In this document: positions 16,212 through 47,709 of the stretch, piece by piece
How positions within the stretch are numbered: the first letter of the stretch is position 1
Layout of the letters: each line of letters begins with the position of its first letter
Position numbers and translations under genes: made by a program
Notes under the pieces: generated by a model
Seen by the model: the letters and a program-made list of their open reading frames with translations, nothing else
Database searches by the model: none
What the model was told of the DNA's origin: nothing
Assembly (NCBI GenBank): GCA_018815245.1
Contig: JAHIXK010000008.1
Coordinates: forward strand, 62,001-126,000
Source: Gammaproteobacteria bacterium
Lineage (GTDB): Bacteria; Pseudomonadota; Gammaproteobacteria; Burkholderiales; Burkholderiaceae_B
Length of the DNA stretch: 64,000 nucleotides
Reading direction: 5' to 3'

Positions 16212-17003
16212 CTAGTTCCTAAGATAAATTATTCTGTCAAACGGCGTGCGCACCATTTTCTGGCTATAGTCCATGTTTTCAGGATCTGTGTTGGTGCTCG
16301 GCGCAACCTGATCACTCGCCACCACGTCGTACCGGTACCTTAAGCTAACCACATCGCCTTTTTCATCTGGATTTCTCCTCAGGAAATTCTCCCCTTTGAC
16401 GTATACATCTGCGAAGCCGTCATCATCCTTGTCTATACCCGCCCAAAAAGTAAGGTTTTCTATTCCGCTGGCAAGCACCACCGTATCAGCTATCGGATCA
16501 AGTCCGTTCAGTACGTCCATGTTCTTCTTGATGCCATCTCTTGTAAAACGTCGGCAAGTCACTTTGTCATCACCGCGTCGAATTCGGACATAGTAAAGTT
16601 TGCGCGTTGCCGAAAGGTCTCTGCCCGTGCAGTCAAAAGATGAAATGAAATCATCGTTTTGTTCAGCATAAAATCGGTAAAAAAGTATGTAGTTGTTTCT
16701 CAGGATGATAGACTCACCCTTTTGAAAACCATATTCTTCGGGAAAGTCAATCAAGTCATTGGTGGTGGGGGAATATTTGTATCCTGCTTTTTTCACTTCG
16801 TGATTAATTGATTCTTGTAGTAAACGCGCATTTTCAAGAATTGAAAACATTGCATTGTGAGAGAAGTTGTTGTTGTAGAAATTGGATATGCCAGTGAATG
16901 CGGCAGACAGCACAATGGCGCTTAGCGCGACATAGATCATCAACTCGATCAGTGTATAGGCTTCGATTTTTTTATTTTTATTGATTGTCCGAATTGTATT
17001 CAT
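16212..17003 (-). CDS. pilW: PilW-like minor pilin
   Basis: 263 residues with an N-terminal pilin helix (AYTLIELMIYVALSAIVLSA) containing Glu at +5. The residue before the expected cleavage site is Ala, not the usual Gly. Length and order fit PilW. Its start overlaps the pilV stop (ATGA), so the two are translationally coupled. Codon use is clearly AT-rich (many AAT, TTT, AAA codons) compared with the genes on either side of the pilin cluster. Confidence 0.8.
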   Translation of the reverse strand: MNTIRTINKNKKIEAYTLIELMIYVALSAIVLSAAFTGISNFYNNNFSHNAMFSILENARLLQESINHEVKKAGYKYSPTTNDLIDFPEEYGFQKGESIILRNNYILFYRFYAEQNDDFISSFDCTGRDLSATRKLYYVRIRRGDDKVTCRRFTRDGIKKNMDVLNGLDPIADTVVLASGIENLTFWAGIDKDDDGFADVYVKGENFLRRNPDEKGDVVSLRYRYDVVASDQVAPSTNTDPENMDYSQKMVRTPFDRIIYLRN

Positions 17004-17512
17004 AATTTGCCCATTAACCTGTAATAGTTTTCGGCTTGGTCTGGTTCTGTTTCGCAGTTATATCCTGTCTCAATGGTTTCATTTCCATCACGCCACATTA
17101 TTTCTATAGCAATCGCCTTTCTTTGTTTTAAAAAAGTAACGCAACCACGGCCATTTGGAAGCAAGCTTCTCATTTGATTGTGCCAAGCTCGCAGGTTTTT
17201 TAAAGCCAATTTATCGTAAATTTTGTCATTCTTCATTTTGTTATTAAGCAGCTTAATTACTTTGTCAACGTCGACTCTTCTTTCGCCAAGCTCGAAATCG
17301 TCCACAAATGGTTTGCTCGAACGAACTCTTTCAATCATGTCCAGCGCCAGCATGGAGGCGTGTGCACGGTACTCTGCCGTGGTGGACGACTTGAAAGACT
17401 GGATTTGCAAGTTACTTAAGCTGAGAAATCCAATAGCAAAAAGAAAACTGGCAATCACCACCTCTATCAAAGCGGCACCCCGGTTTTTTTTGTTTGGCAG
17501 ATAAGTTTTCAT
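17000..17512 (-). CDS. pilV: PilV-like minor pilin
   Basis: 170 residues with a basic leader, cleavage after G in NRG/AALIEVVIASFLFAIGF and Glu at +5. A region resembling PilV follows (YRAHASMLALDMIERVRSS). It lies second in the operon after the fimT-like gene with a 37-base gap. Function is inferred from the PilV family: a tip or priming pilin. Confidence 0.8.
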   Translation of the reverse strand: MKTYLPNKKNRGAALIEVVIASFLFAIGFLSLSNLQIQSFKSSTTAEYRAHASMLALDMIERVRSSKPFVDDFELGERRVDVDKVIKLLNNKMKNDKIYDKLALKNLRAWHNQMRSLLPNGRGCVTFLKQRKAIAIEIMWRDGNETIETGYNCETEPDQAENYYRLMGKL

Positions 17513-17549
17513 GTGGTCTCGCGTGGTCGGTTTAGTCTTGGAAGGGTGG

Positions 17550-18170
17550 TTAGCCGTCTTCAGGCGGGTCTACCGGAGTATTCGCTTGCACACAGGTATT
17601 GTTTGGCATCACTTCAGTTGTTGTGTGAATTCGGCGGCTCACTGTCACACGCCTTGTGTACTGGCTTTCGCAGACTGTGAAAATCGCCTCCCTGGGTCTC
17701 CATTGGCCGTCTGCTCTTTTGGCCTCCAGATAGCCGGAATTTGAAACCCTGAACACCGCCCCAACAGATTCGTTGGTGGTGAGCAATATTGATTGCGCTG
17801 CCTCATTTATTTCGTAAACAAGAACGTCTGCTCCGGTGCCGTCGAAAACCTCGTTGCCGTTGTCTACCCAAACACGCCAGCCCTGTTCCCACCTGCTGTT
17901 GATCGCGCCAATGTAGACAAGCTGATTTCTGGCCCTGGCCTCAGCCCGGGCCAATCGAGCGGACGCGGCCAGTTCACGGGCTGTGGCATCGACTCGCGCG
18001 GTGTAGATTTGTTCGAATAGTGGAGGAACCATCAAGGTAATCAACACTGCGACGATCGCTATTGCGATCATAAGTTCCAGCAGAGAATAGCCCTTGAGCC
18101 GTGTGTTAAGCCGTGTACGAAGCATGGGTTCATCGCTCGATCGAAATATGATATTGATTCTATTAATCAT
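17550..18170 (-). CDS. fimT: GspH/FimT-family minor pilin
   Basis: About 206 residues from the ATG at 18170. A shorter start at 18125 (MLRTRLNTRLKG) would give a more ordinary class III leader, and the frame is open to a TTG at 18185. Cleavage is expected after G in LKG/YSLLELMIAIAIVAVLI. The rest matches the GspH/FimT domain (ARELAASARLARAEARARNQ; GQWRPREAIFTVC). First gene of the operon, where Pseudomonas has fimT/fimU. The divergent intergenic stretch up to the reductase gene probably holds its promoter. Confidence 0.82.
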   Translation of the reverse strand: MINRINIIFRSSDEPMLRTRLNTRLKGYSLLELMIAIAIVAVLITLMVPPLFEQIYTARVDATARELAASARLARAEARARNQLVYIGAINSRWEQGWRVWVDNGNEVFDGTGADVLVYEINEAAQSILLTTNESVGAVFRVSNSGYLEAKRADGQWRPREAIFTVCESQYTRRVTVSRRIHTTTEVMPNNTCVQANTPVDPPEDG

Positions 18171-18324
18171 TTTCCGGGTGGCCAATCACCCGTCGAGGTT
18201 GATCGTAAGGGGGTAGGGTTAGGTGCCGTGGGGTGACCAAGATATTAAAAAGTGTTCACTAAACTCCAGGTTTTCAATTAATTTAAAAAATCTCAATAAA
18301 ATCAACAATATAAAAAATAAAATA

Positions 18325-34715: not shown

Positions 34716-35974
34716 ACGGCTTGGTCCTCCTGCGGATTGTGTTCTGTTGGGGCGGTGGCTTTCTTCCTGGACGCTGGCGTGTTCACCGCGCTGAGTGTGT
34801 GCACTTTTTGCTCGGGCTTCACAGTGAAATCCTTGTCGAGGGAGAAGAATGATTCGCAACCGTTATTCGTGATGATGATGGTGTCTGAAATGCCACAGGT
34901 TTTGTCGCCATCCACACCCCACATCCATGGAATAATGTGAAAGGTCATACCTTCTTCGAGTATGGAAGACTCACCCTGCTTCAGACTCATGATGTAGCCT
35001 TCATCCCAGCTGGGCGGAAAGGCGATGCCAATCGAATAGCCTGAGCGGGTAATCAGCCGCGCACCCACATCGTTGTAGGTGATGATGTTGCGAATCAGGT
35101 TATCGGCATCTGAAACGGTCATGCCTGGTTGAAAATACTCGTGCACTGCGTCCAGCGCATGCTTCATGGTTTCCTGCGCTTTGTACATGGAATCACTTAG
35201 CTCGCTCAGCACCGCAGTGCGCATCATGGCGGTGTGGTAGCGGCGGTAGCACCCACCCACTTCCAGAAACACATGTTCTCCAGGTTGCACCACGCGGCCT
35301 TCCCAGGTGGCGTGGCCGATCATGCTGCGCGGCCCGCTGGTGACATAAGGCATTACGGCGGGCGGTTCGCCCCCGGCTTTGAACATGGCCGATGAAATGG
35401 CTGCACCAATGTCGTTTTCGCTGACTCCCGCAGCACAGGCTTCAAGGCCGGCTTTCATGCCCGCCTCGGTTGCGTATGCAGCTTTGCGCATCAGCTCAAT
35501 TTCTACTTGTGATTTGCGCAAGCGGCCTTGCTCCACAATGCCGAAACAGTCTAGCAATTTGCCTTTGCTTAGCCGCGTGTGAACGAAGTCTTGTTGATAG
35601 GCCGGAAAGAAGTAGCTGTTGCGTTCGTAGCCAATCCGTTTGTCATCCAGTCGAAATTCGCGCAGTGCGTCCAGCAACATTTGAATGGCGTCGCCAGTGT
35701 CGGGGTAGGGGCGCGATTGCTCAACCCAGGTGCGCGCAAACACGTTTGACTCTTCCAGTGCCCGCGTAATCATGAATGGTTCGTCTTCCAGCGGTACCAC
35801 CAGTGCCTGAAAAAATGAGTACCCGGTGGTTTGGTAGTCCGTCAGGTACATGATGTTTTCGGGGTCGGTAATGACCACCGCATCCAGCCTGCGTTGCGCA
35901 ATTCGAGTGCGCAATTCGGAAATGCGGCGTTCGTATTCCTCGAAAGGAAAAGTCATGTCGTCGCGTTTTTTCAT
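34712..35974 (-). CDS. doeA: Ectoine hydrolase (creatinase/M24 fold)
   Basis: 420 residues. N-terminal creatinase domain (RISELRTRIAQRRLDAVVIT; MYLTDYQTTGYSFFQALVVP) and a pita-bread M24 domain. The segment where metallopeptidases have D-x-G...D-x-T reads FLEVGGCYRRYHTAMMRT, so metal-ligand aspartates are replaced, as in the non-peptidase creatinase-like members. DoeA/EutD opens the ectoine ring to N-acetyl-diaminobutyrate. Start overlaps the doeD stop (ATGA) and its own stop overlaps doeC, making a tightly coupled set. The alternative reading is an unspecified M24 hydrolase. Confidence 0.83.
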   Translation of the reverse strand: MKKRDDMTFPFEEYERRISELRTRIAQRRLDAVVITDPENIMYLTDYQTTGYSFFQALVVPLEDEPFMITRALEESNVFARTWVEQSRPYPDTGDAIQMLLDALREFRLDDKRIGYERNSYFFPAYQQDFVHTRLSKGKLLDCFGIVEQGRLRKSQVEIELMRKAAYATEAGMKAGLEACAAGVSENDIGAAISSAMFKAGGEPPAVMPYVTSGPRSMIGHATWEGRVVQPGEHVFLEVGGCYRRYHTAMMRTAVLSELSDSMYKAQETMKHALDAVHEYFQPGMTVSDADNLIRNIITYNDVGARLITRSGYSIGIAFPPSWDEGYIMSLKQGESSILEEGMTFHIIPWMWGVDGDKTCGISDTIIITNNGCESFFSLDKDFTVKPEQKVHTLSAVNTPASRKKATAPTEHNPQEDQAV

Positions 35975-37248
35975 GCTGCCTCCATGGCCATGTCCACGGC
36001 TTTAATCAGGGTGCTTAAGCCCTGTTCAAGGTCTGAATCAGGAATGGTCAGTGGCGGAATCAGTTTCACAACGCGGCCACCTGTGCCGCAACCCGCGATC
36101 ATCAGCCCGTTTTCGAAACACTGGTTTACGATGGCTTTGGACACTTCCGTGCTGCCCACATTCAAACCCAAAATCATGCCCTTGCCTGTCAATTCAAGTG
36201 CAGGGTGACGTTTCACCAAAGTTTGCATGGCCGCATGCATTACCTTGGCCTTGCGTTTTACTTCGTTCATCAATTCATCGTTTTCAAAGTAGGTCAAAGC
36301 CTCGCGCCCGGCCACGAACGACAAATTTTGCCCACGGAATGTGCCAGTGTGCTCACCCGGCGCCCAGTGCTTGTCAATTTCCGGTTTCACCAGATTCAGG
36401 GCCATGGGGGTGCCCCAGCCGCCCACGCCTTTGGCCAGGCACACAATGTCGGGGTCAAGGCCCAGTTCATCAAAACTGAAATAAGTGCCAGTGCGGCCAC
36501 AACCAACCTGAATGTCGTCGATGATCAGCAGTGCGCCCACGTCTTTGGCCAATGCCTGTAGTTGTTGCAGCCATTCTTTGGAAGCTACTTTTACGCCACC
36601 TTCGGCCTGAATGGTTTCAATCAGGAAGGCGGCGGGCGGTGCTACGCCGCTGGATGTGTCGGCATACAATGCGCGCATGCGCTGAATGCTTTCTTCGCCA
36701 CAACCCAATGTGCAGCCTTTGCACAAAGTTTCACAACCAAAAGCCTGGTGGGTTACATGCTGAAGGGGCACGCCCGCAGCACCACGGAAATAAGCATTGG
36801 CCGTGCAAGCCAGCGCGCCCAGCGTCATGCCGTGAAAACCATGCGAGAACGACACAATTTGCTGGCGGCCGGTTACCCGGCGTGCAATTTTCAAGGCGGC
36901 TTCAACCGAATTGGTACCCGTTGGGCCCATGAACTGCATTTTGTGCGGCATGTTGCGCGGCTTTAATACCACATCCTCGAACTTTTCAATGAAAGCGCGT
37001 TTGGCCACTGTGGCCATGTCCAGGCTGTGGGTAACGCCATTGGATTGAATGTATTCAACCACCGCTTTTTGCATGCGCTCGTTGTTGTGCCCAAAATTCA
37101 GCACGCCCGCGCCCGCAAAAAAGTCGATGTATTCCTTGCCGCTTTCATCGGTTTGGCGGGCGTTGTACGCTTTGTCGAACACCACTGGGTAAGTGCGGCT
37201 GTAGCCGCGAACATCGCTTTCTCGTCGCTCAAAAGTTTGCATATTCAT
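35971..37248 (-). CDS. doeD: Diaminobutyrate-2-oxoglutarate aminotransferase (DoeD/EctB type)
   Basis: 425 residues from ATG 37248 (AGGAG eight bases upstream). PLP-dependent class III aminotransferase. N-terminus FERRESDVRGYSR...FPVVF-like and DFFAGAGVLNFGHNN strongly resemble EctB. PLP Lys lies in VCLAKGVGG, with acidic DD in LLIIDDIQVGCGRTG. It would convert L-2,4-diaminobutyrate to aspartate semialdehyde. No ectA or ectC is nearby, so a catabolic role fits better than synthesis. Oddity: a cysteine cluster C-x3-C-x2-C-x3-C (CETLCKGCTLGC, residues 172-183) that I do not associate with this family. Confidence 0.85.
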   Translation of the reverse strand: MNMQTFERRESDVRGYSRTYPVVFDKAYNARQTDESGKEYIDFFAGAGVLNFGHNNERMQKAVVEYIQSNGVTHSLDMATVAKRAFIEKFEDVVLKPRNMPHKMQFMGPTGTNSVEAALKIARRVTGRQQIVSFSHGFHGMTLGALACTANAYFRGAAGVPLQHVTHQAFGCETLCKGCTLGCGEESIQRMRALYADTSSGVAPPAAFLIETIQAEGGVKVASKEWLQQLQALAKDVGALLIIDDIQVGCGRTGTYFSFDELGLDPDIVCLAKGVGGWGTPMALNLVKPEIDKHWAPGEHTGTFRGQNLSFVAGREALTYFENDELMNEVKRKAKVMHAAMQTLVKRHPALELTGKGMILGLNVGSTEVSKAIVNQCFENGLMIAGCGTGGRVVKLIPPLTIPDSDLEQGLSTLIKAVDMAMEAA

Positions 37249-37263
37249 TGACATCACTCCTTT

Positions 37264-38436
37264 TTATTGTGTTGGTCGGGGGGCGCCCACCAGCCGCGCG
37301 TAAAGGCGGGTGACTGGTTCGATCAACGCATCGTTGAAATCGTAAAATGGGCTGTGGCAGGGGTAGGCTTGCTCGCCGGCAATGCCAGCGCCTACCAAAG
37401 CAAATGCGCCCGGAATTTCTTCCAGGTAATAGCTGAAATCTTCAGAGGCCATGATTGGCACGCGAATTGGTGTATCCAAAGCGTCGACGCCAGCCAGGTC
37501 AAGCCATGCTGCGCGAACCCGGCTGGCTTGTTTGGCGTGGTTAGTGGTGGCGTTGTAGCGGGGTTGAATGTTCACTTGCGCTTTCACGCCGTAAGCGTGT
37601 GCCGTGTGTTCAACAACCTCCACGATCAGGGCGTTGATTGCATCGCGGGTTGCAACATCGGGCACGCGAATGCTGCCGCCCAACACGGCCTGTTGCGGAA
37701 TTACGGTAAGCCCGCTGGGCGCATTAAACGAAGTTACGCTGAGAACAGCCGCCTGTTGGGGCGCCAACCTGCGCGCCACCACTTGTTGCAGGGCCTGCAC
37801 CATGGCACTGCCTGCAAGCACAGGGTCGCGGCACAATTCGGGCTGGCTGGCGTGGCCGCCCTGGCCGGTCACTGTAATTTCAAAGGTGCCGTTGCCGCAC
37901 ATCACAATGCCATCGGGGCACACCAGTTTGCCTTGGGGTATTGCGGGCCAATTGTGCCAGCCGTAAATTTCGTCAATGCCTTGCAGTGCACCCGCTTCAA
38001 TCATGCGCAGGGCACCGTGGCCACCTTCTTCGGCTGGCTGAAATATCAGGGTAACGGGGCCAGGCAATTGGTATTCAACACTTTTCAGGTATCGGGCTGC
38101 GGCCAGCAACACTGCGGTGTGGCCGTCATGCCCGCAGGCATGCATGCAACCCATTTGGCGCGAAGCCCAGCTTTTTCCGGTTTGTTCTTGAATCGGCAGG
38201 GCATCAATGTCGCCGCGCAGGGCAATGTGGGGGGCGCTGGCTGATTTGGCTGCGGTGTTCAGGCGCGCAAGGGTGCCGGTGCCCGCGCATGGGGACCAGT
38301 CAATGTTCAAATCGCCAAGCGCCTTGCGAATTTTTTGCGCCGTGCGTGTTTCGTGCCAGCTCAGTTCAGGTTCGCAGTGTAGTTCACGTCTGAAACTTAT
38401 CGCCTGGCTGATCGTGTTTTGCCAGAACGCGGACAT
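37264..38436 (-). CDS. doeB2: M20-family amidohydrolase, probable N-acetyl-diaminobutyrate deacetylase (DoeB2-like)
   Basis: 390 residues. Dinuclear metal-site motifs of M20D amidohydrolases: HACGHDGHTAV, FQPAEEGGHG, H in GWHNWPAIPQG and IMASEDFSYYL. A dimerisation domain lies in the middle (about 185-300). Family members hydrolyse N-acyl amino acids. First gene of the operon, 15 bases ahead of doeD, so deacetylation of N-acetyl-diaminobutyrate is the most economical role. The classical Halomonas DoeB belongs to another fold; this would be the M20 alternative. Promoter expected in the 205-base gap to the GDPD gene, where I see no clear hexamers. Confidence 0.75.
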   Translation of the reverse strand: MSAFWQNTISQAISFRRELHCEPELSWHETRTAQKIRKALGDLNIDWSPCAGTGTLARLNTAAKSASAPHIALRGDIDALPIQEQTGKSWASRQMGCMHACGHDGHTAVLLAAARYLKSVEYQLPGPVTLIFQPAEEGGHGALRMIEAGALQGIDEIYGWHNWPAIPQGKLVCPDGIVMCGNGTFEITVTGQGGHASQPELCRDPVLAGSAMVQALQQVVARRLAPQQAAVLSVTSFNAPSGLTVIPQQAVLGGSIRVPDVATRDAINALIVEVVEHTAHAYGVKAQVNIQPRYNATTNHAKQASRVRAAWLDLAGVDALDTPIRVPIMASEDFSYYLEEIPGAFALVGAGIAGEQAYPCHSPFYDFNDALIEPVTRLYARLVGAPRPTQ

Positions 38437-38641
38437 TGTTCTCCCTGTGATTGGATTACGAATTCCCTTATTTACCCTAATGGACTACGCCGATCATTTC
38501 AAGGCGGGTCTTCCTTAAGGGCATAATCTATAGGTGACTCGGTTTTTTAATCAGAAGTTCCTGAAATTAAATACAATTCCGGATTAATTGCCTTTTGACC
38601 AAGCCAGGTCTAGGGCAAAACATGTAAATCACAGAGGCAAT

Positions 38642-39361
38642 ATGGCGATGCAATGGTGGGCCCACCGAGGTAGTGGCAAAGGCGAACTTGAGAACACTCT
38701 AAAAGGTTTCAAAATTGCAGTAGATGCAGGTTTTAAGGCAGTGGAGTTCGATGTCATGTTGACTGCGGACGGCGTGCCCATGATTCACCACGACTGGGTG
38801 ATGGGGCGGTGTGCTCGATCGATTGACCCTGCCATGGCCGCCACCGATTCGCTGACCCGGTTCGATAGCCTGCGCGCCCGCGACCTTCGGCACTATGCCG
38901 TGCAAGGTGAACCAATACCCAGCCTGTCACAAACCATCGAGTTTTGTTTGAAACACGGTATGCAGGCCAATGTGGAGTTGAAAGCAACAAACCCGCGCAA
39001 TGCTATTGCTCTGGGGCGGGCTGTGCGTGCTGCTGTTGAGGCATTTCCACTTGACCAGCAAGAACACATGCGCAGCAACTGGGTGTTTTCCAGCTTCTAC
39101 CATGCAAGCCTGTTGCCCTTGAAAGGGTACGACCTTGCTTTGCTTTATGAGCAACTGCCCGATAACTGGGTGTTGCGCGCCGATGCGCTGCAAGCCAGTG
39201 CCATTCATTTGCACTGGAGCGGAGCCGAGCCCACCGCATTGCGCCGCATCCACACCACAGGGCGGGTGGTTCGGGTTTACACGGTGAACGACGCCGAACA
39301 GGCGAAAACGCTGCAAGCCTTGGGTGTGAAAGGGATTTTTACCGATCGAATGACCTTATAA
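38642..39361 (+). CDS. Glycerophosphodiester phosphodiesterase (cytoplasmic, UgpQ type)
   Basis: 239 residues from ATG 38642 (CAGAGGCAAT upstream). The frame is open from 38588, but the family begins at WWAHRGSGKGELENT. The signature HRG...ENT, acidic residues in VEFDVMLTADGVPMIHHDW and the C-terminal KGIFTDRM are all present. There is no signal peptide, so it is the cytoplasmic type that splits glycerophosphodiesters into glycerol-3-phosphate and an alcohol. It lies 54 bases before alaS. Confidence 0.92.
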   Translation: MAMQWWAHRGSGKGELENTLKGFKIAVDAGFKAVEFDVMLTADGVPMIHHDWVMGRCARSIDPAMAATDSLTRFDSLRARDLRHYAVQGEPIPSLSQTIEFCLKHGMQANVELKATNPRNAIALGRAVRAAVEAFPLDQQEHMRSNWVFSSFYHASLLPLKGYDLALLYEQLPDNWVLRADALQASAIHLHWSGAEPTALRRIHTTGRVVRVYTVNDAEQAKTLQALGVKGIFTDRMTL

Positions 39362-39415
39362 TCGAGGGTTAAACCAAAAACCGCACCCCGCTTTATTCAG
39401 GAAGGTAGCCCCAAC

Positions 39416-42391
39416 ATGAAAGTCGCTGACATTCGCGAAAAGTTTCTTGATTTCTTTGCCAGCAAGGGCCACACCATTGTGCCTTCCAGCAGCCTGGTGC
39501 CGGGCAACGACCCCACCCTGCTGTTCACCAACAGCGGCATGGTGCAGTTCAAAGACGTGTTTACCGGAAAAGACAAGCGCCCCTACACCCGCGCCACTTC
39601 CAGCCAACGCTCGGTTCGCGCGGGCGGCAAGCACAATGACCTTGAGAACGTGGGTTACACAGCGCGCCACCATACTTTCTTTGAAATGTTGGGCAATTTC
39701 AGCTTTGGCGATTACTTCAAGGAAAACGCCATTCAGTACGCTTGGGAACTGTTGACCACGGTGTACAAACTGCCCGCCGAGCGTTTGTATGTGACTGTGT
39801 ACCAAGAAGACGACGAGGCCTACAACATCTGGAACAAACAGGTGGGCGTGCCCGCCGAGCGCATTATTCGCATTGGCGACAACAAAGGCGCGCGTTATGC
39901 GTCTGACAACTTCTGGCAAATGGCCGACACTGGCCCCTGTGGCCCCTGCACCGAAATTTTCTATGACCACGGCCCCGATGTATGGGGCGGCCCACCCGGA
40001 AGCCCAGAAGAAGACGGCGACCGCTACATTGAGGTGTGGAACCTGGTGTTCATGCAATTTGACCGCAGCGCCGATGGCGTGTTGCACCCATTGCCCAAGC
40101 CCTGCGTAGACACCGGCATGGGCCTGGAGCGCATTGCCGCAGTGCTGCAGCATGTGCACAGCAACTATGAAATCGACCTGTTCCAAACCTTGATTAAAGC
40201 GGCTGCGCGTGAAGTAACGGCGCAGGGCCATGCTGTTGAATTGACCAACAATTCCCTGCGCGTCATTGCTGACCACATCCGCGCCTGTTCATTTCTGGTG
40301 GTCGATGGTGTTATTCCCGGCAACGAAGGCCGAGGCTACGTGCTGCGCAGAATTATTCGCCGCGCCATTCGCCATGGCTACAAACTGGGTTGCCGCAAGC
40401 CATTCTTCAATGCCATGGTGGGCGATTTGGTGGCTGAAATGGGCGAGGCCTACCCTGAACTGGCCAAAGCTGCCGCACAGGTTCAAAGCATTTTGAAAGC
40501 CGAAGAAGAACGCTTCTTCGAGACCATTGAAAACGGCATGGCCATTCTGGAGCGCAGCTTAGAGCCAGAGTATCTTGTAGTCGATGATGTCAGTAAACGA
40601 CTGCAGTCGGAAAAACACTTTCTTCAAACTGAATTGATAGAGGATTATGTATTTTTTGCGCATTATTTCCTTGGGAACAATGATCAAGCCGTTTTACAAA
40701 TTACAAAGGTGTTTGATTCGTATTCAGAACATGAAGTTGAATCTAATTTAGACAACTTTATTTACCACTCGAATAAACTACACGTTGAGTTCAAGACCTT
40801 CGCAGTTTTGGCACCAAAAATAAATGTCGATCCGACATTAAGATCACGAATCAATCAGAAAGCGAAGATAAGTGGTGTGGAAGTCCTCTGGTATGACAAA
40901 TCATCACTAGCAAAATTAAAAATCCTAAATGGTAAGGTAGCTTTTCAACTACACGACACTTACGGCTTCCCGCTCGACCTGACAGCCGATGTGTGTCGCG
41001 AACGCGAAATGAGCGTAGACGAAGCCGCGTTCGATGAAGCCATGAACAAGCAAAAGCAACAGGCCCGCGCAGCAGGCAAGTTCAAGATGGACGCTGATTT
41101 GTCCTACAACGGCGTGTCGACTGAATTCAAGGGCTATGACGCGCTGGAAGTGGCCAACGCCAAAATCACGGCCATTTACGTGAACGGCACATCGGTCAAC
41201 AGTATTGCAGCCGGGCAACAAGGTGTTGTTGTGCTGGACCAAACCCCTTTCTATGCAGAAAGTGGCGGCCAGGTGGGCGACCAGGGCGAAATTTCAAGCG
41301 GCGCTGCCTGCCTGAATTTATTCCGTGTCGAAGACACGCAAAAAATTCAAGCCAATGTGTTTGGCCACCACGGCGAATTGGTCACTGGTGAACTAAAAGT
41401 GGGCGATGCCGTGGGTGCGCAAGTGGACCAGTACCAGCGCAACCGCACCATTCGCAACCACAGCGCCACGCATTTGATGCACAAGGCCTTGCGCGAAGTG
41501 CTTGGCGACCATGTTAGCCAGAAAGGCTCGCTGGTGGATGCCGAGAAAACCCGCTTCGACTTTGCCCACCACAGCGCCATGACGCCTGAGCAAATTGCGC
41601 AGGTGGAGCGCATTGTGAACGAAGAAATTTTGGCCAACGCCGAAACCCAAGCCCGCGTGATGGACATTGAAAGCGCGAAAAGTGCAGGCGCCATGATGTT
41701 GTTTGGCGAGAAGTATGGCGACACCGTGCGTGTTTTGGATATTGGTACTTCGCGCGAACTGTGCGGTGGTACCCACGTGCAGCGCACCGGCGACATTGGC
41801 CTGTTCAAGATCACCAGCGAAAGCGGTGTGGCTGCAGGCATTCGCCGCGTGGAAGCCACCACCGGCCTGGGCGCCATGGAATTCGCCCAGAAGGCGCAAG
41901 CCCAGGTCGATGCGATTGCGCAAAGCCTGCGTGTGCCCGCTTCTGAGGCCACCGCGAAAATTGACCAAATTATGGATCAGGTGAAAAACCTGGAAAAAGA
42001 ACTGGACCGCTTGAAAAGCAAGCTGGCTGCCAGCCAGGGCGACGATTTGGCCGGGCTGGCCGTGGATGTCAACGGCGTGAAAGTATTGGCTGCCAAACTG
42101 GAAGGCGCTGATGTAAAACAGCTTCGTGAAGCAGCCGACAAACTACGGGACAAACTGGGCAATGCCGCATTGGTGCTTGCCACCGTGCTGGAAGGCAAGG
42201 TCAGCCTGATTGCATCTGTCAGCAAAGACGCAACAGCCAAAGTAAAGGCCGGCGACTTGGTCAACTTTGTGGCCCAGCAGGTGGGTGGTAAAGGTGGTGG
42301 CCGCCCCGACATGGCACAAGCTGGCGGCACCCAGCCAGAAAACCTGGATGCTGCGCTGGCCAGCGTTGTAGACTGGGTTAAATTAAAATAG
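39416..42391 (+). CDS. alaS: Alanyl-tRNA synthetase with in-frame insertion
   Basis: 991 residues against about 875 usual. Class II catalytic core ([46 protein letters not shown]), tRNA-recognition domain, editing domain with zinc ligands ([16 protein letters not shown]) and the C-Ala domain ([15 protein letters not shown]). Residues 383-502 are an extra block between AILERSL and [19 protein letters not shown], where homologues have only a few residues. The rest aligns well, so the enzyme is probably active. The frame stays open through the insert. Ala charging is essential, so the insert must be tolerated, probably as a surface domain on the tRNA-recognition part. Confidence 0.97.
40562..40921 (+). 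other. AT-rich, in-frame 120-codon insertion inside alaS
   Basis: The DNA changes abruptly from GC-rich to clearly AT-rich style near 40560 and returns near 40952. The encoded 120 residues begin [14 protein letters not shown] and end SSLAKLK. The first part looks helical (residues 388-455); then a strand-helix-strand pattern follows ([22 protein letters not shown]). I see no intein motifs, no catalytic residues of homing endonucleases, no terminal inverted repeats and no target-site duplication. I do not recognise the domain. The right-hand neighbouring codons 503-512 ([10 protein letters not shown]) are conserved in AlaRS yet written in the AT-rich style. Confidence 0.85.
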
Positions 42392-42414
42392 AAGCAAAGG
42401 AGCAAAGAGACAAC

Positions 42415-42642
42415 ATGAATTTTGACCGTGAAGTAGACGCCAGCGGATTGAACTGCCCGCTGCCCATTTTGAGAACCAAAAAGGCCTTGGCTGAGATGCA
42501 GAGTGGGCAGGTGCTTAAGGTGACCTCCACCGACCCTGGTTCCGTGCGCGATTTCGCCATGTTTGCCAAGCAAACCGGTAATGAGCTGTTGGAACAGGGC
42601 GATCAGGCAGGCGCATTCATTTTCTACATGAAGCGCCGCTGA
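42415..42642 (+). CDS. tusA: TusA-like sulfurtransferase carrier
   Basis: 75 residues matching the TusA/SirA fold: the CPxP motif NCPLPILRTKKAL supplies the persulfide cysteine. These proteins relay sulfur for tRNA thiolation, molybdenum cofactor or sulfur oxidation. Start with AAGGAGCAAAGAG upstream, 23 bases after alaS, so it is likely co-transcribed. The context does not tell which sulfur pathway it serves. Confidence 0.93.
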   Translation: MNFDREVDASGLNCPLPILRTKKALAEMQSGQVLKVTSTDPGSVRDFAMFAKQTGNELLEQGDQAGAFIFYMKRR

Positions 42643-42658
42643 AGCACAAGGACACAGC

Positions 42659-43312
42659 ATGAGCGTTGTTTTCGGCAAGCCTGATGTGCCCCAACACTGG
42701 CTGCTTGATGCCAATGTTCTGTTCTCGGAATGGACGCGCTGGTTGGTTGTTACATTGGCCAAGCGGCATCAGGCCACCTTGTATTGGACCCCACAGATAG
42801 AAAATGAGTGCTACCGCAATTTGGTTCGCTTGGGGCGCTTGCACCCCGATGACGCAGTTGCGCAACGTGCAGCTTTGCCCCAGCTAATGGATGCTGTCGT
42901 ATTACCACAAGCCCATCAACCTTATCTGGTTGATGTGCGTTCGGTTGATGAGAAAGATCGACACGTGGCCGCATCGGCCTTGGCGTTAAAGCACCACGTT
43001 CAGGCGCCCGTGGCCATTTTGACCTGGAACTTGAAAGACTTTCCCAGAAAGCCTTTGCTGAAATTGGGTTTGGTGCGTTTTAGCCCTGACGAGCTGTGTC
43101 TGGAATCATTGAAGAAGCAGGGTGACGCTTTGAGTTGTCTTGTACAAACCGTCGCTGAAATGAATTCGGCCTTGTTGATACACAGACCAATTTACCCAAC
43201 GGTGTATCAAGTCAAAGCAGCGCCATTGCCCACCGATCTCGACGAGTGGCTTGCTTTTCTGGCCCGCAACAAGATGCATCGCACTGCCAAGGTGTTATAC
43301 AAAGAAAATTGA
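42659..43312 (+). CDS. PIN-domain protein
   Basis: 217 residues. PIN-fold acidic residues: D17 in HWLLDANVLFSEW, E in PQIENECYRNL, and D in VDEKDRHVAASAL, followed by AILTWNLKDFP. This is a probable Mg-dependent RNase domain of VapC-like or solitary type. No antitoxin-sized gene adjoins it. The start follows tusA by 16 bases with AAGGACACAGC upstream, so it rides in the alaS-tusA transcript. The C-terminal 70 residues are extra to the PIN core and unassigned. Confidence 0.82.
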   Translation: MSVVFGKPDVPQHWLLDANVLFSEWTRWLVVTLAKRHQATLYWTPQIENECYRNLVRLGRLHPDDAVAQRAALPQLMDAVVLPQAHQPYLVDVRSVDEKDRHVAASALALKHHVQAPVAILTWNLKDFPRKPLLKLGLVRFSPDELCLESLKKQGDALSCLVQTVAEMNSALLIHRPIYPTVYQVKAAPLPTDLDEWLAFLARNKMHRTAKVLYKEN

Positions 43313-43382
43313 CTACCCCGTCTTGGTTAGTTAGATTAGACAGAGGGAGACTTATCATTGTGTTACACATCATGGAAAAAGT

Positions 43383-43862
43383 ATGCTCCGGCTAATTTAC
43401 ACTTCTGTTCGATCTTCTGGCCTCGATAAGGTGGCCTTTGAACAATTGTGTGAGAATGCTTCCCGGAACAATATGGCCCTGGATGTGGGTGGTTTGCTGT
43501 TGTCAAACGACCTTGAGTTCATGCAATGCCTAGAGGGCCCCACCGAGGCGGTGGCCGCCATTTACAAAAAAATTGTTCGGGATTCGCGCCATTCTGACAT
43601 TCGCTTGCTGGTCTCGGAAACCACGGATAACTTACTTTTCGCAACATGGTCCATGTTGGGTTTGGCCATCAAGCCGCAGTCTGTCTTGAGCTCCGAGCCA
43701 ATTGCGTATACCCTGCTCGATCATCGGTTGTATCGTCCCTGGAAGTCTTTGGGGATTGGTGCTGCTGATTTAATTTACGAGTATGCCAAAGTCAAAGCCG
43801 AGCTTGAAAAAGCGGGTGAAATAGGTTTGTTGGATAAGGTATTTGACGTGTATCAACCTTGA
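43383..43862 (+). CDS. BLUF-domain blue-light photoreceptor
   Basis: 159 residues: a single BLUF domain (about 1-95) plus a helical tail. The key flavin-pocket residues keep AppA spacing: Y6 (LIYTS), N30 (NNMALDVGG) and Q48 (FMQCLEGP). BLUF proteins bind FAD and switch on blue light. There is no output domain, so it must act through a partner protein. The next gene, 18 bases on, is an exported metallo-beta-lactamase-fold protein. Confidence 0.93.
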   Translation: MLRLIYTSVRSSGLDKVAFEQLCENASRNNMALDVGGLLLSNDLEFMQCLEGPTEAVAAIYKKIVRDSRHSDIRLLVSETTDNLLFATWSMLGLAIKPQSVLSSEPIAYTLLDHRLYRPWKSLGIGAADLIYEYAKVKAELEKAGEIGLLDKVFDVYQP

Positions 43863-43879
43863 TGTAGGCCGGTCGCAGT

Positions 43880-44845
43880 ATGACAATTCGTTTTTTACTC
43901 CGCACAGTTCCCCTGGTTTTCATTTTTCCTCTCGCAACTTTGGCCCAGGGTTTGGTCAAAGTTACCCCCTTGGGGGGCCAAGAGGGTGAGTTTTGCCGGT
44001 TTGACCGTGCCATGATTTTCGAAGACCCCAATGGCACCCGCATTTTGTACGATGCAGGCCGGACCGTGGCTGGTGCTGAAGATCCCCGTTTGGGGAAAAT
44101 TGATGTGGTGCTGGTGAGCCACATGCACGGCGACCACCTGGGTGACAGACACAACCTCGCGCCCAATGCGGGCAGTTGCGACAAGCCTGATATCTCAACC
44201 AGCGCTTTGCCCAATTCAAACACTGTGAACATTGCTGTTAAAACCAGTGCAAAAATTGTAACCGGCAGTGAAATGCCATCCTTCCTGGCCAACAAGCTGA
44301 AGCAAGCGGGCGGCGACGAAAAAAATTCGGTGTTGGTGCGTTTTGGCGCCATGCAAACCATTGGCGGTGTGGGCATTACCACCGTGCCAGCAGCCCACAG
44401 CAATGGTATTTCCGGTGAATTTGTGGGTCAGCGTTTGGGCGATTTGCTGAAGGAAACTGGAATTACAGCCTACGCAGGCCCTGCCACTGGGTATGTGCTG
44501 AAGTTCAGCAATGGTTTGGTGACTTACTTAAGTGGCGACACTGGTATTACCGCAGAGCAGAAGGAAGTGGTGGGCGAGTACTACAAACCCCAGTTGGCTG
44601 TGATGAACATTGGCGACACATTCACCACCGGCCCGCGTGAAGCTGCTTATGTGGTGAACAAGCTGGTAGGGCCCAAAGCCGTGATTGCAAGCCATGCCAA
44701 TGAAGTGGCCACCTTGAACGGCAAGGTAATTGCAGGCACAAAAACCGAGCAATTCATGAAAGCCAGCAAGGTGCCGGTGTATGTGCCCTTGAGCGGAAAA
44801 ACCATGAACTTTGATGGCAAAGGAAAGTGCATGGCGGGCTGCTGA
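43880..44845 (+). CDS. Secreted or periplasmic MBL-fold metallohydrolase
   Basis: 321 residues. Signal peptide (MTIRFLLRTVPLVFIFPLATLAQ), then a metallo-beta-lactamase fold with the motif H81-x-H83-x-D85-H86 (SHMHGDHLGD) and a later AHSNGISG / YLSGDTGI pattern for the remaining ligands. Substrate unknown: the family covers lactonases, phosphodiesterases and sulfatases. Its stop is two bases from the convergent valS stop. Confidence 0.87.
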   Translation: MTIRFLLRTVPLVFIFPLATLAQGLVKVTPLGGQEGEFCRFDRAMIFEDPNGTRILYDAGRTVAGAEDPRLGKIDVVLVSHMHGDHLGDRHNLAPNAGSCDKPDISTSALPNSNTVNIAVKTSAKIVTGSEMPSFLANKLKQAGGDEKNSVLVRFGAMQTIGGVGITTVPAAHSNGISGEFVGQRLGDLLKETGITAYAGPATGYVLKFSNGLVTYLSGDTGITAEQKEVVGEYYKPQLAVMNIGDTFTTGPREAAYVVNKLVGPKAVIASHANEVATLNGKVIAGTKTEQFMKASKVPVYVPLSGKTMNFDGKGKCMAGC

Positions 44846-44847
44846 TT

Positions 44848-47709
44848 TCAGGTCAACTTGATAAGTTGGCTTTCCAGTTTTTCAAGCAAGGCGCTAAATT
44901 CAACCAAGCGCGCTTTTTCCTGATCCACCACCGCAGCCGGTGCACGGTCCACAAAGCTGGCATTGCCCAGCTTGCCATTGCATTTGGCAATTTCAATGCG
45001 AATTTTTTCGGCTTCCTTGTCAATGCGCGCACGCTCGGCTTCCACATCGATTTCAATGTGAAGCATCAGTTTCAGTTCATCCACAATTTGAACGGGTGCC
45101 ATTGACTCGGCAGGCAGTGTATCCACCACCTCGACATTGCTCAACTTGGCCAGTGCAGCCAACACGGGGCCTGTTTTTTCCAGAAATACACGCTGATCTG
45201 CATTGCCTTCACAGCTTGCGATGAGCGGCACTTTGTCGGCTGGTCCCAAGCCCATTTCACTGCGCAAAGCGCGAACCGCGTCGACTGTTGATTTAAGCTG
45301 CACCACGTAGGCCTCGGCTTTTTCATCGATGCGCGAAGGCACGCTGACCGGGTAGGTTTGTGTCATCAGGTTGGCTTGCTCGCCTTCTTCGCGGCGGCCT
45401 GCCACCACGCTGACGGTTTGCCACAGTTCTTCAGTGATGAACGGAATAATGGGGTGGGCCAAACGCAAAACTGTTTCCAGCACGCGCACCAGCGTGCGGC
45501 GTGTTGCGCGCTGTTGTGCCGCTGTGCCGTTGGCAATTTGCACCTTGGCAATTTCCAGGTACCAGTCGCAGTATTCATCCCACACAAACTGGTAAATGCT
45601 TTGGGCAATCAGGTCGAAACGGTAGGTCTCGAACCCCTGCGCAATGTCGGCTTCCACGCGTTGCAGGGTACTTGTAATCCAGCGGTCAGCCTGTGAGAAA
45701 TCAAGGTAACCGCCAGGTGTGCAGGCGTCTGCATCGTGGTCGCCGGTTTCGCAATTGAGGCCGCAGTCTTGCCCTTCGGTGTTCATCAACACGAAGCGTG
45801 TTGCATTCCACAGCTTGTTGCAGAAGTTGCGGTAACCGTCGCAACGCTTCTGGTCAAAGTTGATGTTGCGGCCCAGCGTGGCCAGGCTGGCGAAGGTGAA
45901 TCGCAACGCGTCAGCACCGTAAGCCGGAATACCGTCTGGAAATTCCTTGCGGGTTTTCTTCTCGATCTTCGGTGCGTCTTGCGGTTTGCTTAAGCCCGTG
46001 GTGCGTTTCACCAGCAGGGTGTCCAATTCGCAACCATCAATCAAATCGACCGGGTCAAGGGTGTTACCCACCGATTTGCTCATTTTCTTGCCTTCAGCGT
46101 CGCGCACCAAACCATGCACATACACAGTGTGGAAGGGCACCTGCCCTGTGAAGTGCGTGGTCATCATGATCATTCGGGCCACCCAGAAGAAAATGATGTC
46201 GAAGCCAGTTACCAACACAGAGGATGGCAGGAAGTGCTTCAGTTCAGGTGTTTCATCGGGCCAGCCGAGTGTGGAAAATGGCACGAGCGCCGATGAAAAC
46301 CAGGTGTCCAGCACATCGTCGTCACGCTTCAATTCTCCGGCATAACCGGCAGCGGCTGCCTTGCTGCGCGCATCAACTTCCGTGCGGGCCACGAACACTT
46401 CGCCGTTCTCACCATACCAGGCGGGAATTTGGTGACCCCACCACAGCTGGCGGGAAATGCACCAGTCTTGAATGTTGTTTAGCCACTGGTTGTAGGTGTT
46501 CACCCATTGCTCGGGTACAAACTTAACCTGGCCTTGTTCAACCGCGTCGATTGCTTTCTGGGTAATGCTTTTGCCGGTGGTGTCGCCTTCAGCGGTTTTG
46601 GTCATGGCCACAAACCACTGGTCGGTCAGCATGGGTTCAATCACCACACCCGTGCGGTCGCCCTTGGGCACCATCAGCTTGTGGGGCTTGATTTCACCCA
46701 GCAGGCCTTGTTCTTCCAGATCAGCCACAATTTGTTTGCGGGCCACAAAGCGGTCCATGCCCACGTACTTCGCAGGCGCGTGCTCGTTGATGGTTGCATC
46801 AAGGGTCAGAATATTGATCAGCTCCAGCTTGTGGCGCTGGCCCACGGCATAGTCGTTGAAATCGTGCGCCGGGGTTACTTTCACCACCCCGGTCCCGAAT
46901 GAACTGTCCACATAATCGTCGGCAATAATGGTCAGTTCACGGTCGCACAATGGCAGTTTTACCTTCTTGCCAATCAGGTGTTGGTAGCGTTCATCCTCGG
47001 GGTGCACCATCACGGCGGAATCGCCCAGCATGGTTTCCGGGCGGGTAGTGGCCACGGTCAGGTGGGTCAAGCCCTTCACTGGGTCAGCTTCAACCAGCGG
47101 GTACTTCAATTCCCACAGGTGGCCTTCGGTTTCAACGCTTTCCACTTCAAGGTCGGAAACCGCTGTTTTCAGTACCGGGTCCCAATTTACCAAGCGCTTG
47201 CCGCGGTAAATCAAGCCTTGTTCAAACAGACGAACAAACACTTCGGTGACTGACTTGGACAGGGCCGGGTCCATGGTGAAGTATTCCCGCTGCCAATCCA
47301 CACTGGCACCCATGCGGCGCATTTGTTCAGTAATTTTGCTGCCACTTTCATTTTTCCATTCCCAGATTTTTTCCACAAACTTTTCGCGACCCAAATCGTG
47401 GCGGGTAATGTTTTTGGCAGCCAACTGGCGCTCTACAACAATTTGCGTGGCAATGCCTGCGTGGTCGGTGCCGGGTTGCCACAAGGTGTTGTGGCCGCGC
47501 ATGCGGTAGTAGCGCGTTAGCCCGTCCATGATGGTTTGGTTAAACGCATGGCCCATGTGCAGCGTGCCGGTTACGTTGGGCGGCGGCAATTGAATGCAAA
47601 AGTCGGGTTTGCCATCCACGGTGGTGGCCTTGGCGTGGCCTTGGCGCTCCCATTCAGGGCCCCAGTGGGATTCAATGGCATTCGGGTCGAAACTTTTGGC
47701 AAGGGTCAT
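44848..47709 (-). CDS. valS: Valyl-tRNA synthetase
   Basis: 953 residues, normal length. Class I motifs HMGH ([15 protein letters not shown]) and KMSKS ([14 protein letters not shown]), CP1 editing domain, anticodon-binding domain, and a C-terminal coiled coil ([16 protein letters not shown]...[15 protein letters not shown]). The 261-base gap upstream to the chemoreceptor gene holds its promoter; I see no clear motif there and no T-box-like leader. Confidence 0.98.

What the first reader, a model, noticed from the sequence alone, without database searches (positions are those of the whole stretch)
40562..40921. In-frame 120-residue AT-rich domain inserted in essential alaS
Alanyl-tRNA synthetase here is 991 residues against about 875 expected. 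The extra residues are one block at 383-502, between the conserved AILERSL and [19 protein letters not shown] segments, where homologues have a handful of residues. The DNA style switches sharply to AT-rich within the block, while the frame remains open for 360 bases. That is strong evidence for acquired, translated sequence in an essential gene. I recognise no intein, homing-endonuclease or known insertion domain. It could be a mobile in-frame element, a regulatory or moonlighting domain, or a trait imported from an AT-rich donor.
Basis: partly seen in the sequence, partly recalled or inferred. Interest (0 to 1): 0.85.

Follow-up and report, generated by a model that had tools for sequence, protein, structure and literature searches.

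The report
Foreign block inside alanyl-tRNA synthetase
One bacterium's only detected copy of an essential enzyme, alanyl-tRNA synthetase, carries about 115 extra amino acids of unknown, apparently recently imported, AT-rich origin in a loop where its close relatives have about ten.

Summary
The gene (39416-42391 +, 991 aa) is the only alanyl-tRNA synthetase detected in its genome. Residues 383-502 form an in-frame, coding-like block of 36% GC in a 56% GC gene; same-genus homologues have about ten residues there. It is not a clean insertion: 12 of 19 residues unique to this genome lie in the 20 aligned codons around it, so about codons 379-511 were replaced. No convincing relative was found in one-genome-per-species contigs (a search that sees only close relatives), plasmids, phages, viral contigs or four sets of 200-399 whole genomes. 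Family and fold searches gave only weak, conflicting leads (nuclease-like, TPR-like), so the fold is open. An unrelated 86-aa, lower-GC insert sits at the same loop in another family of the order (G932); two further genomes have roughly 20-30 extra residues there. Best explanation: foreign coding DNA, probably part of a divergent alaS already carrying the domain, entered by short-tract recombination and is tolerated as a passenger in a permissive loop. Donor, translation and function are unproven. Mobility is unsupported and an intein unlikely; an assembly error is unlikely but not excluded.

The parts
39416..42391 (+). alaS, alanyl-tRNA synthetase, 991 aa, the only copy detected in the genome
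   Evidence: single match in own genome
40562..40900 (+). net inserted block (codons 383-495), AT-rich, in frame
   Evidence: aligned columns empty in all nine same-genus AlaRS proteins used; GC
40550..40561 (+). left edge of the replaced tract (codons 379-382, ERSL against DSAL)
40901..40948 (+). right edge of the replaced tract (codons 496-511); ends in AlaRS-like but divergent residues LNGKVAFQL
   Evidence: the 20 edge codons together differ at 55-62% of bases from nine relatives, against 12-18% in codons 512-560
38588..39361 (+). neighbour: GDPD-family phosphodiesterase gene
   Evidence: Pfam PF03009; the region aligns in order with relative G007
42659..43312 (+). neighbour: PIN-domain-like gene (below the Pfam cut-off)
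   Evidence: PF13470 25.3 bits, cut-off 27

Best explanation
The native alaS of this bacterium had a short stretch (about 400 bases as it now stands) replaced by foreign coding DNA from an AT-rich source. The most likely source is a divergent alaS that already carried an extra domain at this loop, brought in by short-tract recombination, for example after natural transformation. The import survived because both ends kept the frame and because the loop, late in the N-terminal (aminoacylation and tRNA-recognition) half, tolerates extra sequence. The extra domain is most likely a passenger without a role in charging tRNA. Shown here: the replaced tract and its sharp edges, its composition, its absence from the relatives read, and an unrelated same-site insert elsewhere. 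Inferred: donor gene, route of entry, recency, translation, folding and neutrality.
For: Window-unique residues: 12 of 19 (of 878 aligned) lie in 20 tract-edge codons; hypergeometric p about 1e-17, with edges chosen after seeing the data. Tract edges differ at 55-62% of bases from nine relatives, against 5-15% in codons 340-378 and 12-18% in codons 512-560. The right edge keeps L.G..AF: 13-17 of 27 bases match the 12 same-genus homologues tested, whereas 111 in-frame 27-mers of the block match the L004 segment at a mean of 7.3 and a maximum of 14. Codon-phase GC looks coding. Other long insert at the same loop: G932, 86 aa, GC 0.51 against 0.64 and GC3 0.52 against 0.90 in the upstream part of the gene, with no BLASTP similarity to this block. 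Roughly 20-30 extra residues in G979 and G983. Outside the tract the gene differs from relatives mostly at silent sites: 22-48 residue differences in 847-850 codons at 12-15% base difference. A ComEC/Rec2-family gene is present and minor-pilin-like genes lie in the window.
Against: No donor alaS was found: a pattern for [11 protein letters not shown] had 0 matches in genome contigs (it demanded H, so donors with Y would be missed). Low GC3 in the 10 codons before DTYGFP is not special: L005 3/10, L015 3/10 and L022 1/10 have no insert, so composition of the edge proves nothing. Against L004 the right-edge base match (14) only equals the best 27-mer of the block. The left edge shows little alaS-like trace. 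Competence genes do not show uptake: 10 of 14 control genomes, E. coli among them, have a ComEC match too. No reads were seen.
Confidence: 0.6

Rival explanations
1. A fragment of an unrelated AT-rich gene was joined into alaS by illegitimate or homology-facilitated recombination, and the edge codons were altered at the junctions.
For: No insert-bearing donor alaS was found; the left edge shows little alaS-like trace; such recombination is described in print (abstract of PMC3240628).
Against: The right edge keeps L.G..AF over nine codons with different codons, which a random junction would rarely give; no convincing free-standing relative of the block was found.
Confidence: 0.22
2. The block is a working domain gained for a benefit, such as regulating AlaRS, binding a partner, or changing a surface attacked by a toxin or phage factor.
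For: It stays open and in frame with coding-like phases; a second lineage has an unrelated insert at the same loop.
Against: No family or fold assigned; absent in the 14 same-genus relatives read; low GC suggests youth (inference); no test of selection on the block was possible with one sequence.
Confidence: 0.1
3. Assembly or binning chimera.
For: No reads available; the sequence is seen in one genome only.
Against: Frame kept at both ends and no stop in 121 AT-rich codons (0.05% by shuffle), position in the interior of a 298-kb contig, neighbourhood as in G007, contamination estimate 0.02.
Confidence: 0.05
4. A mobile in-frame element (intein, homing-endonuclease remnant, palindromic element).
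For: In-frame insertion at one conserved spot; a weak PADLOC match to CARF_PDDEXK (E 0.002, 15.3 bits).
Against: No intein or endonuclease family for the block, no second copy in the genome at E <= 10, only short imperfect repeats, no Rfam match, nothing in phages or plasmids; hhalign to two CARF_PDDEXK-family proteins found nothing.
Confidence: 0.03

Closest known systems
Mosaic housekeeping genes made by short-tract recombination
   Same: Sharp-edged replaced stretch in an otherwise conserved, syntenic gene; short donor patches are reported for natural transformation (abstract of PMC13344027).
   Different: The patch carries a new 113-codon block, not just diverged codons.
Lineage-specific indels in AlaRS
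   Same: In-frame extra residues in alaS.
   Different: Those reported for Spirochaetes are 2 aa (region 277-306) and 4 aa (165-211) at other places (passages of PMC3726837); this one is 113 aa.
AlaRS of genome G932 (same order, other family)
   Same: Long, lower-GC insert at the same loop.
   Different: 86 aa, no sequence similarity to this block.
Rickettsia palindromic elements (recalled; one search gave listings only)
   Same: In-frame extra sequence tolerated inside proteins.
   Different: Those are short palindromic repeats present in many copies; this one is single-copy and longer, with no palindrome of its length found.

Membership tests
Bacterial alanyl-tRNA synthetase (TIGR00344) | Whole-protein score above the curated cut-off | tested here: met
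   1032.7 bits against 457.05
Bacterial alanyl-tRNA synthetase (TIGR00344) | Catalytic, editing and C-terminal domains all present | tested here: met
   PF01411, PF07973, PF02272; H682, H686, C783, H787 invariant in 11 aligned proteins (their metal-site role is recalled)
Bacterial alanyl-tRNA synthetase (TIGR00344) | Charges tRNA-Ala with the block in place | not testable with these tools
   Inferred from its being the only copy detected in a genome rated 96.11% complete
Intein | Cys/Ser/Thr at the first residue and His-Asn before Cys/Ser/Thr at the end (recalled) | tested here: not met
   By inspection the block starts EPEY and ends KLKI/LNGK; no intein family
Group I/II intron or other known RNA element | Match to an Rfam model | tested here: not met
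   0 matches at E <= 1 over 39300-42500
PD-(D/E)XK nuclease (CARF_PDDEXK type) | Convincing profile match | tested here: inconclusive
   PADLOC E 0.002, 15.3 bits; hhalign to the domains of L067 and L068 gave probability 0.1, 10 columns
PD-(D/E)XK nuclease (CARF_PDDEXK type) | Core fold with D and (D/E)xK (recalled) | tested here: inconclusive
   Model order strand-strand-helix-strand-helix-strand but mean pLDDT 53.9; motif not evident by eye; best PDB Foldseek hits are of another kind (eIF3/Rpn8/Rpn11/CSN5 complexes, E 0.011 or worse, TM under 0.4)
Tetratricopeptide repeat (TPR) | Pfam TPR match in the block | tested here: not met
   0 Pfam families at E <= 10, with HMMER's filters on
Tetratricopeptide repeat (TPR) | Sequence similarity to a TPR unit | tested here: inconclusive
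   Block residues 26-72 resemble one repeat of a TPR protein of about 580 aa (Pfam): 30% over 47 aa, pairwise E 2e-5; the same repeat in several look-alike proteins; per-genome E 0.0015-0.05

The most novel reading that the evidence does not exclude
This loop of bacterial AlaRS is a recurrent landing site where different lineages repeatedly acquire unrelated foreign domains, moved between species inside short alaS tracts, and the acquired domain changes the enzyme's surface to advantage (for example evading a competitor or phage factor that binds AlaRS).
Probability: 0.1. Interest if true: 0.75.

Novelty: new variant of a known kind. Interest (0 to 1): 0.5.

Why it matters
Essential translation enzymes are usually thought to be hard to invade with foreign sequence. 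Here one appears to have taken up a block of about 115 residues with no convincing relative in the collections searched, and a second lineage has a different block at the same loop. If expressed and folded, the pair marks a permissive site for adding domains to AlaRS and offers a natural test of how new domains enter essential proteins. If neutral, it is still a clean example of in-frame acquisition by one member of a genus.

Tried and rejected
Intein, RNA intron, palindromic or repeat element: see membership tests. PD-(D/E)XK nuclease: suggested by one weak PADLOC hit and by eye; hhalign and Foldseek did not support it; left open. JAMM/RadC-like fold: among top Foldseek rows, but TM under 0.4 and on a pLDDT 53.9 model; not accepted. 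Several are the same repeat of look-alike proteins of about 580 aa (L034, L036, L037, L039, L041, L044; L043), and L037 is TPR by Pfam. These are orthologue-like, so they are one weak lead, not seven; it disagrees with the strand-rich single-sequence model, and the fold stays open. Other weak hits: G166 (5 stops), G671 (per-genome E 8.6e-5 but 5 stops), G768 (2 stops), G1122 (L058, 31-38% identity over a 93-aa frame), G590, G612, G836 and G1073 (L042, L040, L038, L059: no convincing match on rereading); none accepted. Full-length model with 11 sequences: poor (mean pLDDT 60.5, block mostly under 50); not used. Low GC3 of the right edge as proof of import: dropped after the control. My first DNA alignment mixed strands for several loci; conclusions rest. 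One search used nine relatives (L004-L012); L003 (partial gene) and L015 (fragmentary) were not entered, and L013 and L014 were tried but missed by my start-motif filter. L003, L014 and L015 are; L003, L013, L014 and L015 are.

Full report
What was checked. The window's alaS (39416-42391 +) codes 991 residues and is a full AlaRS by Pfam and NCBIfam, split into two stretches by the block. It is the only AlaRS match in its genome at E <= 0.001; the genome is rated 96.11% complete. The neighbourhood 35001-46000 aligns in order with same-genus genome G007 at 76-87% identity, and the alignment breaks at window 40551 and resumes at 40940, with 49 bases there in G007. So the gene is at its native place.

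The block. 40562-40924 is 36% GC in a gene that is 56% GC elsewhere; GC by codon phase (0.496, 0.240, 0.347) differs strongly between phases, as in coding DNA, and only the alaS frame is open. In the whole 298-kb contig, of 6 stretches with GC <= 0.39 over 300 bases, only this one lies inside a stop-to-stop ORF of 300 aa or more.

It is a replacement. In an alignment with nine same-genus AlaRS proteins, 113 columns (383-495) are window-only. Of 878 aligned residues 19 are window-unique, and 12 of these lie in codons 379-382 and 496-511 (the exact placing of the gap is MAFFT's). The edge codons differ at 55-62% of bases, the codons just outside at 5-18%. The right edge (LNGKVAFQ against LDGETAFK) keeps the AlaRS pattern with different codons. 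This suggests a piece of a divergent alaS, though against L004 the base match (14 of 27) only equals the best of the block's own in-frame 27-mers.

How rare it is; 39 of 40 genomes had a match. Apart from the window's own, no genome with both halves on one contig has more than 54 bases between them (G038). G015 had no match, G028 only a weak editing-domain match, and in G033 the gene is broken over two contigs near the site; no insert is seen in the piece that holds the site (L089); 385 of 398 phylum genomes had a match and three had two matches, the own genome, G932 and G814; in G814 the halves are about 22 bases apart. The row list was cut, so a genome whose short left piece failed the threshold could be missed. 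(query centred on the site): 145 of 150 order genomes had a match. Two matches were seen in the own genome (its two halves), G033 (contig break), G979, G983, G1010 and G1036. In G979 the halves are 66 bases apart and in G983 93. G1036's second match is on another contig; G1010's second was not among the listed rows. The samples overlap.

The same loop elsewhere. G932 has 86 extra residues at the same place, GC 0.51 against 0.64 and GC3 0.52 against 0.90 in the upstream part of its gene, unrelated to this block by BLASTP, with no Pfam match and no plasmid match. It is the only genome of its genus held, so its age is unknown. Lower GC3 continues into its right flank (20/30, p 0.0014), but of 29 genes without a long insert L027 and L028 show similar dips (p 0.005 and 0.002), so this is weak. 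In G979 the 40 codons up to the site have GC 0.46 in a 0.60 gene; G983 is an AT-rich gene throughout.

What it might be. No Pfam, NCBIfam or PHROG family for the block, and the best PDB sequence E-value was 0.42. PADLOC gave CARF_PDDEXK at E 0.002. No relative was confirmed in genome contigs (35 pattern matches, none confirmed; only close relatives would be seen), viral contigs, plasmids, phages or E. coli genomes by DNA (92). In 200 family, 369 class, 398 phylum and 399 order genomes, 1, 0, 12 and 3 genomes other than the own one had weak matches. Several carry stops; several others are one repeat of a TPR protein resembling block residues 26-72. The single-sequence model (mean pLDDT 53.9) has two strands then helix-strand-helix-strand, which does not suit a TPR. 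Foldseek hits are weak. The full-length model, poor itself, shows helices in the first half of the block and helix-strand-helix-strand in the second. I do not assign a fold.

How it most likely arose and works. AlaRS must work, so only an in-frame import at a permissive loop would survive. The alignment to the AlaRS chain 3hxu (E. coli, as recalled) places the site in the segment LDEELAKLSGDTLDGETAF of that 441-residue N-terminal fragment. A ComEC-family gene is in the genome, and three genes at 16212-18185 look like type IV minor pilins (two by Pfam, of which the PilW match is below cut-off while its N-methylation motif is above; the third by position and its start, recalled). These allow, but do not prove, entry by natural transformation. 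Short donor patches are common in that process in B. subtilis according to the abstract of PMC13344027. Passenger status is my inference from low GC and absence in relatives.

Literature. The listings showed no paper on a large insert at this AlaRS loop; I read only listings there, passages of PMC3726837 and the abstracts and outlines of PMC3240628 and PMC13344027. A search on illegitimate recombination with five terms found nothing. A paper outside that library could exist.

Noticed in passing
window 16212-18185 (-): Three adjacent AT-rich genes that look like type IV pilus minor pilins (Pfam support for two); two of the three low-GC stretches of the window overlap them.
   Followed up: partly
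window 43383-43862 (+): BLUF blue-light sensor gene (PF04940, 83.7 bits) two genes downstream of alaS.
   Followed up: no
L062 2635-2892 (genome G932): Unrelated 86-aa lower-GC insert in AlaRS at the same loop in another family of the order.
   Followed up: partly
L086 and L087 (genomes G979, G983): Roughly 20-30 extra residues at the same AlaRS loop; in G979 the 40 codons up to the site are lower in GC than the gene (0.46 against 0.60).
   Followed up: partly
G000:C16 255881-256430: Another low-GC stretch (minimum 0.327) in the contig, not inside a long ORF.
   Followed up: no
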